64,000 bases of DNA from NCBI GenBank assembly GCA_016871395.1, contig VFYV01000003.1:62001-126000 (forward strand). The letters run 5' to 3'. The notes under the pieces were generated by a model that saw only the letters and a program-made list of their open reading frames with translations, did no database searches and had not been told where the DNA came from. This document shows, one piece after another, positions 10,159-14,721 of the stretch. The DNA is from Actinomycetota bacterium. Lineage in GTDB: Bacteria > Actinomycetota > Acidimicrobiia > Acidimicrobiales > Ilumatobacteraceae. The first letter of the stretch is position 1. Each line of letters begins with the position of its first letter. The position numbers were made by a program, and so were the translations under genes.

Positions 10159-10264
10159 GTCGGCGGCGAATCGTCGGATTCGGCGCATGAAATGGGTCAT
10201 GAGCCCCGTGGCCCGACCCGACTGACGGCTACCGTTGTTCACGCACAGCGCCACGGGCGCGAAG

Positions 10265-11683
10265 ATGTCGGAGGTGGTCCGTACGGCCGAGCAATTTGAC
10301 CTGGTGGTGATCGGTGGTGGTCCCGGTGGCTACGGCGCCGCCTTGTATGCGGCATCGGCGGGCATGAACGTGGCCTTGGTCGAGCGCGACGCTCTCGGCG
10401 GGACGTGTCTGAACCGCGGGTGCATTCCCGCCAAGGCGTTCCTCGAGACCGCTTCGGTGTACCGCCACGTGGCTCACGCGTCCGACTTCGGAATCGAAGC
10501 GTCGGCACCATCGGTGAACTTCGCCAAGACTCAGGCACGCAAGCGCAAGATCGTCGAGGGACTCGTCAAGGGCATCGGCGGTATGTGCAAGGCCCGTAAG
10601 GTCACGGTCTTCAACGGCACCGGTTCGTTGGGTCCCGATCGCACCGTCGAGATTTCCATGGCCGACGGGTCGTCGCCCTCCATTCGAGGTGCGCACGTGA
10701 TCCTGGCGGCCGGTTCGGTGCCGCGCACCCTTCCGGGCTTCGATCGAGGCGGTCCCATCATGACCAGCGACGAAGTGCTCGACCTCGAGTACGTGCCGGC
10801 GCGAGTGGCGGTCATCGGTGGTGGCGCGATCGGATGCGAGTTCGCCTCCACGTTCGCCGACCTCGGTGCGACGGTCACGATTCTCGAGGGCTTACCCCAG
10901 ATCCTTCCGGGTCTCGACACCGATGTTGCCAACGTCGTGGTGAAGTCGTTCAAGAAGAAGAACATCGACATCCGCACCGGCGTAGCCGTGAAGAGTCATG
11001 CCCCCACGACCACGGGTGGCACCGTCGTCACCTTCGGAGAGGGTGAAACATTGGAAGTCGATGTGGTGGTGGTGTCGGTGGGCCGACGACCGCACGCCGA
11101 CTTGCTCGGTCTGGTGGGCACCGGCGTCGTCGTCACCGATCGCGGTTTCGTCGATGTCGACCCGTGGTGTCGTACCAACGAACCCGGTGTCTACGCCGTC
11201 GGTGACCTGATCAACACCCCCCAGTTGGCCCACGTCGCTTACGCCGAGGCGATCCTGGCGGTCAAGCACATGCTCGGCGAAGACCCGTTGCCGATCGCTT
11301 ACGACCGCGTACCGTGGGCCATCTACTGCCATCCCGAGGTGGCGTGGGCCGGTCCGGGCGAGGATGCGGCCAAGGTGGCCGGACTCGATGTGGTGGTGGC
11401 CAAGCATCCGTTCCGCGCCAACAGCCGGGCCCAGATTCTGGGGGAGATCGACGGCCTCGTGAAGATCGTCGCCAAGAAGAATCCCGACGGAACCGCCGGT
11501 CAGATTCTCGGCGTCCACATGGTCGGGCCGTGGGTCACCGAACAACTGTCGGGCGGTTACCTGGCGGTGAACTGGGAAGCCACGGTCGCCGAGGTCGCCG
11601 AGTTCATTCAGCCCCACCCGAGTTTGAGCGAATTGTTCGGCGAGACCGTGCTGTCGATGACCGGCCGTAGTCTGAACGCGTAA
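10265..11683 (+). CDS. lpdA: dihydrolipoyl dehydrogenase (E3)
   Basis: 'DLVVIGGGPGGYGAALYAA', redox motif 'GGTCLNRGCIPAK', C-terminal 'QPHPSLSELFGE'. Confidence 0.95.
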   Translation: MSEVVRTAEQFDLVVIGGGPGGYGAALYAASAGMNVALVERDALGGTCLNRGCIPAKAFLETASVYRHVAHASDFGIEASAPSVNFAKTQARKRKIVEGLVKGIGGMCKARKVTVFNGTGSLGPDRTVEISMADGSSPSIRGAHVILAAGSVPRTLPGFDRGGPIMTSDEVLDLEYVPARVAVIGGGAIGCEFASTFADLGATVTILEGLPQILPGLDTDVANVVVKSFKKKNIDIRTGVAVKSHAPTTTGGTVVTFGEGETLEVDVVVVSVGRRPHADLLGLVGTGVVVTDRGFVDVDPWCRTNEPGVYAVGDLINTPQLAHVAYAEAILAVKHMLGEDPLPIAYDRVPWAIYCHPEVAWAGPGEDAAKVAGLDVVVAKHPFRANSRAQILGEIDGLVKIVAKKNPDGTAGQILGVHMVGPWVTEQLSGGYLAVNWEATVAEVAEFIQPHPSLSELFGETVLSMTGRSLNA

Positions 11684-11727: not shown

Positions 11728-13080
11728 ATGGCAGAGGTAACGCTCCCTCAACTCGGCGAAACGGTCACCGAGGGAACCATCACGCGTTGGTTCAAGAAGG
11801 TGGGCGACTCGGTGGCCGCCGACGAGCCGTTGTTCGAGGTGTCGACCGACAAGGTGGACACCGAAGTTCCGTCACCGATCGCTGGCGTGCTCACCGAGAT
11901 TCGCGTGCCCGAGGGTGACACCGTGCCGGTGGGTGCCGTGATCGCCGTGGTCGGCGCGACCGACTCCGCCGCGCCCCCCGCGCCCGCCGCGCCCGCCGCG
12001 ACCCCCGCGCCCGCCGCGCCCGCGGCCCCGGTCGAGGCTGTCGTGTCGACGATGGCTCCCGAATCGGTACCTACCCGACCCAGTGTCTCGTCCCCGACTC
12101 CCGCACCGGCCGCTGCTTCGGGCAACGACAAACGGTTGCTTTCGCCCGTCGTGCGACGCTTGGTGGCCGAGCACAACGTGAACGTCGACAGCATCCGGGG
12201 CACCGGGCCTGGTGGTCGCGTCACCCGCGAGGACGTTCTCGATCACGTCGACAAACTGTCGGCCGCGTCGCCACCAGCCTCCCCGGCCGCGTCGCCACCC
12301 ACCGCGGTGGTTGCGGTGCCGACGGCCTCGGCTCCGCTCACGCCGGCTCGGAGCGTGCGCGTTGGTGAGCGCGACGATGTGGTGCCGTTGTCCAAGATTC
12401 GTCAACTCACCGGTTCGCACATGGTCATGTCCAAGAGCGTCAGCCCCCACGCGTTCAGCGTGGTCGAGGTCGATTACTTCAACGTGGATCGGACCCGTTC
12501 GCGCACGAAGTTCGAGTTCAAGTCGGCCGAGGGCTTCAGCCTCACCTACTTGCCGTTCATCTCGCGCGCCGTGGTCGACGCGTTGGCCGACTTTCCGCAC
12601 ATGAACTCCAGCATCTCGGGGACCGATTTGGTGATCCATCGCTACGTCGATCTCGGCGTCGCCGTCGACCTCGACGGGCAGGGTCTGCTGGTTCCGGTCA
12701 TTCGTGGGGCCGAGGGCAAGCGTCTGCGGGCCATCGCGCGCGAGATCAGCGATCTGGCGTCTCGGGCCAAGAGTCGCAAGTTGGGTCCCGACGAGATTCA
12801 AGGCGGCACCTTCACCATCTCCAACAACGGCTCGGCGGGAAGCGTGCTCACGATGCCCATCATCAATCAACCACAGGTCGCGATCTTGTCCAGCGACGCC
12901 ATCGTGCGCAAGCCGGTGGTCGTGTCGGTGCCCGGTGGAGGCGAGAGCATCGCCATTCATCCGGTCGGACATCTGGCCATGAGCTGGGACCATCGTGCAT
13001 TCGACGGTGCATACGCGGCGGGTTTTCTGGTGCGGGTGAAAGAAATTCTCGAGACCCGCGACTGGTCGAGCGAGATTTAG
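11728..13080 (+). CDS. 2-oxoacid dehydrogenase E2 (dihydrolipoyllysine acyltransferase), one lipoyl domain
   Basis: Lipoyl-lysine motif 'EVSTDKVDTEVPSPIAG', Ala/Pro linkers, peripheral subunit-binding domain 'LLSPVVRRLVAEHNVNVDSIRGTGPGGRVTREDVLDHV', catalytic 'SWDHRAFDGAYAAGFL'. Confidence 0.93.
   Translation: MAEVTLPQLGETVTEGTITRWFKKVGDSVAADEPLFEVSTDKVDTEVPSPIAGVLTEIRVPEGDTVPVGAVIAVVGATDSAAPPAPAAPAATPAPAAPAAPVEAVVSTMAPESVPTRPSVSSPTPAPAAASGNDKRLLSPVVRRLVAEHNVNVDSIRGTGPGGRVTREDVLDHVDKLSAASPPASPAASPPTAVVAVPTASAPLTPARSVRVGERDDVVPLSKIRQLTGSHMVMSKSVSPHAFSVVEVDYFNVDRTRSRTKFEFKSAEGFSLTYLPFISRAVVDALADFPHMNSSISGTDLVIHRYVDLGVAVDLDGQGLLVPVIRGAEGKRLRAIAREISDLASRAKSRKLGPDEIQGGTFTISNNGSAGSVLTMPIINQPQVAILSSDAIVRKPVVVSVPGGGESIAIHPVGHLAMSWDHRAFDGAYAAGFLVRVKEILETRDWSSEI
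11971..12033 (+). repeat. GC-rich degenerate tandem repeat (gcgcccgcc-type) coding the Ala/Pro E2 linker
   Basis: gcgccccccgcgcccgccgcgcccgccgcgacccccgcgcccgccgcgcccgcg; protein APAAPAATPAPAAPAAP. Confidence 0.8.
12261..12299 (+). repeat. 24-bp-period direct repeat in second E2 linker
   Basis: GGCCGCGTCGCCACC at 12261-12275 and 12285-12299. Confidence 0.7.
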
Positions 13081-13083
13081 GCC

Positions 13084-14721
13084 ATGTTGCGTGTTCGTTG
13101 GGTCGGGCGCGTCGCGTATCGCGAGGCGTTGGAGTTGCAGACCGCACTATTCGAAAACGGGTCCGAGTCGCACCTTTTGTTGCTCGAGCATCCGCACGTC
13201 TTCACCTACGGGCCGCGGGCCGAACTGGACAAGAACCTGAGATGTGATCCGGCCGCTCTCGGGGCCGACTTCGTCGCGGTCAAACGCGGGGGTGACATCA
13301 CCTATCACGGTCCCGGTCAACTGGTCGGCTATCCCATCTTGAACATCGAGAATGCCATTGGCGCCTCGCAACACGTGTGTGAGGTCGAGCAATTGGTGAT
13401 CGACACCCTCCGGGAGATCGGGGTGGACGGGGTGGGTCGCATGGAGGGTTACGCCGGCGTCTGGCTCGACGTCGGCACCGACCGAGTTCGCAAGATCAGT
13501 GCCATCGGTGTGCGTCTGGCGCACGGTCGCACCATGCACGGTTTCGCGTTGAACATCGACCCCGACATGACGTTCATGCGAGAGCACATCGTTCCGTGTG
13601 GCATCGCGGACCTCCCGGTCACGTCTCTGCGGGAGGAGGGTTTCGACGTCGACATGAAAACCGTGGTCGACATCGTCGCCCGATTGGCCGCCGAGAAGTG
13701 GGGCCAGGGTGCGTGCGAACGCCAGGACGTGGTCTGGGTCCATCGCCCGGAGGACTTGTCTCGATTCTCGCGCGGTGAGGGTCCGGGGGAACCGGTCCGC
13801 TTGCTCGGTCGTCTGGCCGATGCCGGTGTGAACGCCGGTCTGGAGATCGCCGATCGCAAACCCGAGTGGTTGCGCCCGCGGGTGAAGATCGGCGAGGACG
13901 TGCTTCGCATCAAGCGCACTCTCGCCGACCTCGATCTGGTGACCGTGTGCGAGGAAGCCGGCTGCCCGAACCTGTCGGAATGTTGGAAGGACGGCACCGC
14001 GACTTTCATGGTTCTCGGTGAGCGCTGTACTCGTGCCTGTGGCTTTTGCCTGGTCGACACCCGTAAGCCCGAGCCACCGGCGATGGACGAGCCGGCTCGA
14101 GTGGCCGAGGCCGTGGAGCGAATGGGTCTGTCTTACGCGGTGCTCACCATGGTGGCACGCGACGATTTGAGTGATGGTGGTTTCGCCCATGTGGCCGAGT
14201 GCGTGCGGGCCATCCGTGAACGCAATCCGCACACCAGGGTCGAAACACTGGTCTCCGACGCCAAGGGTGATGCGTCGTCGATCGATTCGTTGGTGGTCGC
14301 CCGTCCCGACGTGTTCAACCACAACATCGAGACGGTGGCTCGACTGCAGCGAGCGGTGCGACCGTCGGCAGGTTACGCACGAAGCCTGGGTGTGTTGGCT
14401 CACGCCAAGTTGGCCGGGCTCGTGGTGAAGTCGGGGTTGGTGTTGGGAATGGGCGAAACCGTCGAGGAGGTGGATGGTTGTCTGGCCGACTTGGCCGGCG
14501 TCGGCGTCGACATCGTGACGATCGGTCAGTACCTGCGCCCCACGTCGTACCATCTTCCGGTGGCGCGCTGGATCCATCCCGACGAGTTCGCCCGCTGGAA
14601 AAGCGTGGGTGAGAGTCTGGGCATCGGACACGTGGAGTCCAGTCCGCTGACCCGATCCAGTTATCACGCCAAGCAGGCGGCGCAAACGACCGTGCCGGTC
14701 TCGTTGGTCGTGCGCCGTTGA
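13084..14721 (+). CDS. fused octanoyltransferase (LipB)-lipoyl synthase (LipA)
   Basis: One 545-aa ORF: LipB motifs 'KRGGDITYHGPGQLVGYPI', 'RKISAIGVR' (Lys), 'VPCGIADLPVTSL' (Cys), then LipA motifs 'CEEAGCPNLSEC' (CX4CX5C), 'CTRACGFC' (CX3CX2C) and 'RSSY'. Confidence 0.93.
   Translation: MLRVRWVGRVAYREALELQTALFENGSESHLLLLEHPHVFTYGPRAELDKNLRCDPAALGADFVAVKRGGDITYHGPGQLVGYPILNIENAIGASQHVCEVEQLVIDTLREIGVDGVGRMEGYAGVWLDVGTDRVRKISAIGVRLAHGRTMHGFALNIDPDMTFMREHIVPCGIADLPVTSLREEGFDVDMKTVVDIVARLAAEKWGQGACERQDVVWVHRPEDLSRFSRGEGPGEPVRLLGRLADAGVNAGLEIADRKPEWLRPRVKIGEDVLRIKRTLADLDLVTVCEEAGCPNLSECWKDGTATFMVLGERCTRACGFCLVDTRKPEPPAMDEPARVAEAVERMGLSYAVLTMVARDDLSDGGFAHVAECVRAIRERNPHTRVETLVSDAKGDASSIDSLVVARPDVFNHNIETVARLQRAVRPSAGYARSLGVLAHAKLAGLVVKSGLVLGMGETVEEVDGCLADLAGVGVDIVTIGQYLRPTSYHLPVARWIHPDEFARWKSVGESLGIGHVESSPLTRSSYHAKQAAQTTVPVSLVVRR

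What the first reader, a model, noticed from the sequence alone, without database searches (positions are those of the whole stretch)
13084..14721. Octanoyltransferase and lipoyl synthase fused in one intact ORF (LipB-LipA)
A single 545-aa ORF starts 3 nt after the E2 stop codon and carries a full LipB (Lys137 in RKISAIGVR, Cys172 in VPCGIADLPVTSL) followed by a full LipA (CX4CX5C, CX3CX2C, RSSY). LipB and LipA act consecutively, and LipB makes the octanoyl-protein that LipA sulfurates, so a fusion could channel the modified domain. They are normally separate proteins. I cannot tell from here how widespread the fusion is.
Basis: partly seen in the sequence, partly recalled or inferred. Interest (0 to 1): 0.72.

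Follow-up and report, generated by a model that had tools for sequence, protein, structure and literature searches.

The report
Class-wide LipB–LipA lipoylation enzyme fusion
The two enzymes that build the cofactor lipoate on its carrier proteins, normally separate, are one continuous protein here and in practically every member examined of a whole bacterial class (Acidimicrobiia), so the join is real, old and kept by selection, although the two activities themselves are ordinary.

Summary
One intact 545-codon ORF (13084-14721 +) encodes a complete LipB followed by a complete LipA. It starts 3 nt after the stop of a dihydrolipoamide acyltransferase (E2) gene. It is class-wide: all 74 class loci aligned and all 37 Acidimicrobiia-type GenBank contigs carry both domains in one ORF, and about 140 of 198 sampled class genomes show both in one alignment. 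It was not found in about 270 other Actinomycetota, 198 Bacteroidota-type genomes or the plasmid hits listed, where lipB and lipA are often tandem but separate. K137, C172, all six LipA cysteines and RSS are invariant. The junction evolves as coding sequence, carries a class-specific F-[S/T]-R-G-x-G motif and shows no conserved internal start. The order E3–E2–lipBA is conserved. AlphaFold gives pTM 0.87-0.89 for two distant members, suggesting a fixed domain arrangement. The genome has no other LipB or LipA. Most likely this is a bifunctional octanoyltransferase/lipoyl synthase; channelling is plausible but unproven. I found no paper on this fusion; NCBIfam lists a different one (LplA–LipA).

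The parts
13084..14721 (+). lipB-lipA fused gene, 545 aa, one ORF
   Evidence: NCBIfam/Pfam hits to both families; same ORF in class relatives
13084..13698 (+). LipB (octanoyltransferase) domain, residues 1-205
   Evidence: NF010925, TIGR00214 over cut-off; PDB 1w66 Mtb LipB by sequence and fold
13492..13494 (+). LipB catalytic Lys137
   Evidence: invariant 74/74
13597..13599 (+). LipB catalytic Cys172 (acyl-enzyme nucleophile)
   Evidence: invariant 74/74
13699..13791 (+). junction, residues 206-236, with ...DLSRFSRGEGPGEPV...
   Evidence: class-specific F[ST]RGxG motif, not seen in stand-alone LipB C-termini or LipA N-termini; translated and constrained: differences per codon position 0.070/0.087/0.498 within the genus; pLDDT under 50 at 226-237
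13792..13851 (+). LipA N-terminal extension, residues 237-256, counterpart of [17 protein letters not shown] in stand-alone actinobacterial LipA
   Evidence: comparison of N-termini
13852..14685 (+). LipA (lipoyl synthase) radical-SAM domain, residues 257-534
   Evidence: TIGR00510 over cut-off; PDB 5exi/5exk Mtb LipA
13948..13983 (+). auxiliary-cluster motif CX4CX5C (C289, C294, C300)
   Evidence: invariant 74/74
14026..14049 (+). radical-SAM cluster motif CX3CX2C (C315, C319, C322)
   Evidence: invariant 74/74
14653..14664 (+). RSSY motif, residues 524-527 (serine ligand of the auxiliary cluster)
   Evidence: RSS invariant 74/74
11728..13080 (+). E2 dihydrolipoamide acyltransferase with one lipoyl domain; likely substrate, directly upstream
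   Evidence: Pfam 2-oxoacid_dh, E3_binding, Biotin_lipoyl; E2 directly upstream in 79 class loci
10235..11683 (+). E3 dihydrolipoyl dehydrogenase, first of the gene run (mechanical start; the real start may be a later ATG)
   Evidence: TIGR01350 482.6 bits over cut-off

Best explanation
It is a bifunctional octanoyltransferase/lipoyl synthase that makes bound lipoate in two steps on one polypeptide. The LipB domain takes octanoate from octanoyl-ACP onto Cys172 and passes it to the lipoyl-domain lysine of the neighbouring E2 (and of GcvH). [quoted passage not shown] The fusion most likely arose once, before the radiation of the class Acidimicrobiia, from a tandem lipB-lipA pair, and has been kept since. 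Shown by sequence: one ORF, both catalytic sets intact and invariant, translated junction, no other LipB or LipA in the genome. Inferred: that both activities are present, and that the two domains sit in a fixed arrangement that helps hand over the octanoylated domain (my estimate for real channelling about 0.35).
For: Intact ORF with both families over curated cut-offs. Catalytic residues invariant in 74/74. Only one LipA match and one full LipB in the own genome, so this gene should carry both functions; lipoylation substrates E2 and GcvH are present. Class-wide single ORF. Junction under protein-level constraint. In-frame ATG in the junction in 27 of 74 loci against about 50 in random stretches, and no start with a Shine-Dalgarno-like sequence in the window's own junction. 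LipA halves form one group (SH-aLRT 75); for LipB halves one group is not rejected (AU p 0.61). Gene order E3-E2-lipBA conserved. AlphaFold pTM 0.89 and 0.87 for two members 48% identical. In human LIAS the N-terminal residues 66-110 wrap the carrier protein (PMC12246082); the equivalent stretch here is about 249-293, just after the junction.
Against: No biochemical or proteomic data were available. The inter-domain error map of the models was not available, and the junction core has pLDDT below 50 in both. Clade support for one origin is modest (75 for LipA; LipB only not rejected). The genome also has a distant LplA-like protein (G000:C5:83589-84119, 56 bits to LplA-B_cat), so another octanoyl/lipoyl-attaching enzyme cannot be excluded. 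A few class MAGs carry a LipB that ends before any LipA (G144, G238).
Confidence: 0.9

Rival explanations
1. The fusion is a neutral accident fixed once in the class ancestor: the two domains act independently, as they would apart, and the joined form gives no channelling.
For: lipB and lipA are often tandem elsewhere, in some Bacteroidota and Actinomycetota even in the same frame with only a stop between them, so a single stop-codon loss could join them. The junction core is predicted disordered. Junction length varies (C172 to C289: 100-157 residues). Part of one order (for example L045-L049) lacks the motif.
Against: Practically no reversal across more than 60 families, constrained junction sequence, high pTM in two models.
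Confidence: 0.4
2. Two proteins are made from one ORF: LipB is cut off, or LipA is also translated from an internal start in the junction.
For: The junction and LipA N-extension hold in-frame GTG/TTG codons, and 31 of 74 loci have some start codon with a Shine-Dalgarno-like stretch (about 22 expected). Proteolysis cannot be excluded from sequence.
Against: No such start is conserved, and the window's own junction has none with a Shine-Dalgarno-like sequence; ATG is rarer than in random stretches (27 against about 50). If translation were separate, nothing would keep the frame open across the class.
Confidence: 0.07
3. Assembly artefact, frameshift error or a broken pair read through by chance.
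For: The window lies in a metagenome-type assembly (43 contigs, 87% complete).
Against: Same ORF in single-contig genomes (G035, G062, G205) and independent assemblies.
Confidence: 0.005

Closest known systems
Separate LipB (octanoyltransferase, EC 2.3.1.181) and LipA (lipoyl synthase, EC 2.8.1.8), as in Mycobacterium tuberculosis (PDB 1w66; 5exi/5exj/5exk) and E. coli
   Same: Both halves have the full fold and catalytic residues; same pathway order.
   Different: One polypeptide with a conserved, class-specific junction instead of two proteins; no single PDB chain covers both halves.
NCBIfam NF053790 LplA_LipA_fuse, 'bifunctional lipoate--protein ligase/lipoyl synthase'
   Same: A cofactor-attaching enzyme of the LplA/LipB superfamily placed N-terminal to LipA.
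   Different: The partner is the ATP-dependent ligase LplA, not LipB; the model is 606 positions long and matches only the LipA half here, 334.3 bits against a cut-off of 800.
Tandem lipB-lipA operons of other Actinomycetota and Bacteroidota
   Same: Same gene order and direction, in some cases the same reading frame.
   Different: A stop codon or a frame change separates them; the F[ST]RGxG motif is absent from the termini inspected.

Membership tests
LipB octanoyltransferase | Profile match over curated cut-off | tested here: met
   NF010925 175.4 > 155; TIGR00214 126 > 83.55
LipB octanoyltransferase | Cys/Lys catalytic dyad | tested here: met
   K137 and C172 invariant 74/74
LipB octanoyltransferase | Octanoyl-ACP-dependent transfer activity | not testable with these tools
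   needs an assay
LipA lipoyl synthase | Profile match over curated cut-off | tested here: met
   TIGR00510 342.1 > 310.25
LipA lipoyl synthase | CX3CX2C radical-SAM, CX4CX5C auxiliary-cluster motifs and RSSY serine | tested here: met
   all six Cys and R524-S525-S526 invariant 74/74
LipA lipoyl synthase | Sulfur insertion at C6/C8 | not testable with these tools
   needs an assay
NF053790 LplA-LipA fusion | LplA ligase half plus LipA half over the cut-off of 800 bits | tested here: not met
   334.3 bits, positions 330-605 only (LipA half); the N-terminal half is LipB
Single bifunctional polypeptide | Continuous translated junction without stop or conserved internal start | tested here: met
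Substrate-channelling enzyme | Intermediate passed between active sites without release | not testable with these tools
   high pTM suggests a fixed arrangement; no kinetics, no inter-domain error map

The most novel reading that the evidence does not exclude
The fusion is a true lipoylation machine: the junction (F[ST]RGxG motif) and the LipA N-terminal belt hold one carrier domain and swing it from the LipB to the LipA site without release, so that octanoylated E2 never appears free in this class, and the motif may dock the E2 core or ACP.
Probability: 0.25. Interest if true: 0.7.

Novelty: new variant of a known kind. Interest (0 to 1): 0.5.

Why it matters
LipB and LipA act one after the other on the same tethered substrate, and how the octanoylated domain passes between them is not settled. 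A naturally fused, class-wide enzyme gives one protein in which that handover can be studied by structure and kinetics, suggests that the two enzymes can work side by side, and gives a clean molecular marker for Acidimicrobiia. It also warns annotators: a pipeline that gives one name per gene may show Acidimicrobiia as lacking LipB or LipA.

Tried and rejected
(1) Chance or artefact: rejected, same ORF class-wide. (2) Fusions in Bacteroidota: the genome search reported open frames of 555-610 aa there, which looked like parallel fusions; reading 12 such loci showed tandem genes separated by stop codons in the same frame, so rejected. (3) Two-piece matches in about 30 class genomes looked like split genes; the pieces lie in one frame of one open reading frame. 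(4) Internal start for LipA: not conserved. (5) A resemblance of the junction to the E2 peripheral-subunit-binding domain (VRRL...GTGPGGR) was considered and dropped: that stretch corresponds to the LipA N-extension of stand-alone LipAs. (6) PHROGs scan: nothing. (7) Papers: none found that describes a LipB-LipA fusion; Hassan & Cronan 2011 on interactions in lipoate assembly is not held.

Full report
What is there. The ORF at 13084-14721 (+) is intact, 545 codons, and begins 3 nt after the stop of an E2 gene. Residues 1-205 are LipB and residues 257-534 are LipA, each over its curated cut-offs. By sequence and fold the nearest solved structures are M. tuberculosis LipB (1w66) and LipA (5exi/5exk), and none of the matches listed covers both halves.

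How widespread. In the own genus and family the fused ORF is found wherever the gene is assembled whole. In 198 genomes sampled across the class, 186 have a match; by my count of the listing about 140 show both domains in a single alignment, and the remaining listed two-piece matches share one frame and one open reading frame. I read 74 class loci directly: all are one ORF. An independent scan of genome contigs gave named records: uncultured Ilumatobacter, Ilumatobacteraceae, Acidiferrimicrobium, Candidatus Microthrix, Acidimicrobiaceae, Acidimicrobiales and Acidimicrobiia; all 37 loci of this kind are fused, two of them (L105, L128) with the open frame broken within one domain, while the Bacteroidota-type and Gordonia loci are not. 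I therefore infer that the group is Acidimicrobiia; one complete genome (G035, 4,830,181 bp) also fits the size I remember for Ilumatobacter coccineus. Titles such as 'Bifidobacterium breve' on one fused contig (L110) look like wrong MAG labels.

Outside the class. In 297 genomes drawn from the phylum (about 270 outside the class), LipA matches outside the class are separate proteins. In the loci read, lipB lies next door in another frame or behind stop codons (L056 and L078 are in frame but with stops). In 198 genomes of the Bacteroidota group no fusion was found: apparent long frames were tandem genes with a stop between them. The best plasmid records carrying both genes show separate lipA and lipB features or two separate pieces.

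Exceptions inside the class. G144 carries a LipB that ends at the junction with no LipA beside it, and G238 has an extra stand-alone LipB. Both are draft assemblies. They may be secondary splits, extra copies or contamination.

The junction. LipB C-termini outside the class end soon after the last helix, and actinobacterial LipA has an N-terminal extension ([24 protein letters not shown] in several) that corresponds to residues 237-262 here. The real joining piece is about 206-236. In Ilumatobacteraceae and many relatives it reads ERQDVAWxHxxxDLSxFSRGEGPGE; in other orders xQLAAFTRGxGRxxxFEVDRLLxxGTFSP. Some lineages lack the motif (L045-L049). Among nine genus members the differences per codon position are 0.070, 0.087 and 0.498, and the rate of amino-acid change (0.13) equals that of the LipB body (0.145): it is translated and constrained. 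No internal start is conserved.

Origin. In trees of each half with other Actinomycetota and Bacteroidota, the fused LipA halves form one group (SH-aLRT 75), and holding the fused LipB halves together is not rejected (AU p 0.61). One ancient origin from a tandem lipB-lipA pair is the simplest reading; support is modest.

Setting. E2 lies directly upstream in 79 of the class loci examined (86 had at least 1.2 kb upstream; a few shorter ones are among the 79), and E3 before it where the sequence reaches; in several lineages E3 itself is directly upstream. The own genome has no other LipA or LipB, one GcvH, and one distant LplA-like protein.

Mechanism. Established biochemistry: LipB moves octanoate from ACP to the lipoyl-domain lysine, LipA then adds two sulfurs. 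In human LIAS the N-terminal residues 66-110, up to the first auxiliary-cluster cysteines, form a belt around the carrier protein (PMC12246082). The equivalent here is about 249-293, so LipB is attached directly before the substrate-binding belt. AlphaFold models of two members 48% identical give pTM 0.89 and 0.87 although the junction core itself is low in confidence; two domains of this size in random orientation would normally give a lower pTM, so I infer a fixed arrangement, without having seen the inter-domain error. [quoted passage not shown] Channelling is therefore reasonable but not shown.

Novelty. Both activities are textbook. The architecture is not described in any paper I could search, and the large lipoate-assembly survey of 2023 mentions LplA-LplB fusions but not this one in its main text (PMC10332631). 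NCBIfam has an LplA-LipA fusion model. Automatic databases may already label such entries as multifunctional proteins; I could not check. I rate it a new variant of a known kind.

Noticed in passing
G000:C5:83589-84119 (L183:1414-2166), outside the window: A single-domain LplA-like protein (250 aa, RRSGGG motif, 56.7 bits to LplA-B_cat, far below every NCBIfam cut-off) in the same genome; possibly a divergent ligase or octanoyltransferase.
   Followed up: partly
window 11728-13080: E2 with only one lipoyl domain; best NCBIfam model SucB_Actino at 405 bits, just under its cut-off of 423, so whether it serves pyruvate or 2-oxoglutarate dehydrogenase is open.
   Followed up: no
L238 (G144), L240 (G238): Stand-alone LipB genes inside the otherwise fused class; possible secondary fission, extra copy or contamination.
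   Followed up: partly
L190-L201 (Bacteroidota group): lipB and lipA tandem, in the same frame with only one to a few stops between them: one or a few mutations from a fusion, yet not fused.
   Followed up: yes
L148, L151, L167, L171, L174: Bacteroidales-type loci with the reverse order lipA-lipB, with the two open frames close together or overlapping.
   Followed up: no
L110, L112, L117: GenBank MAG titles (Bifidobacterium breve, Ferrithrix, Acidimicrobium) that look mechanically assigned; L110 is clearly an Acidimicrobiia-type sequence.
   Followed up: no
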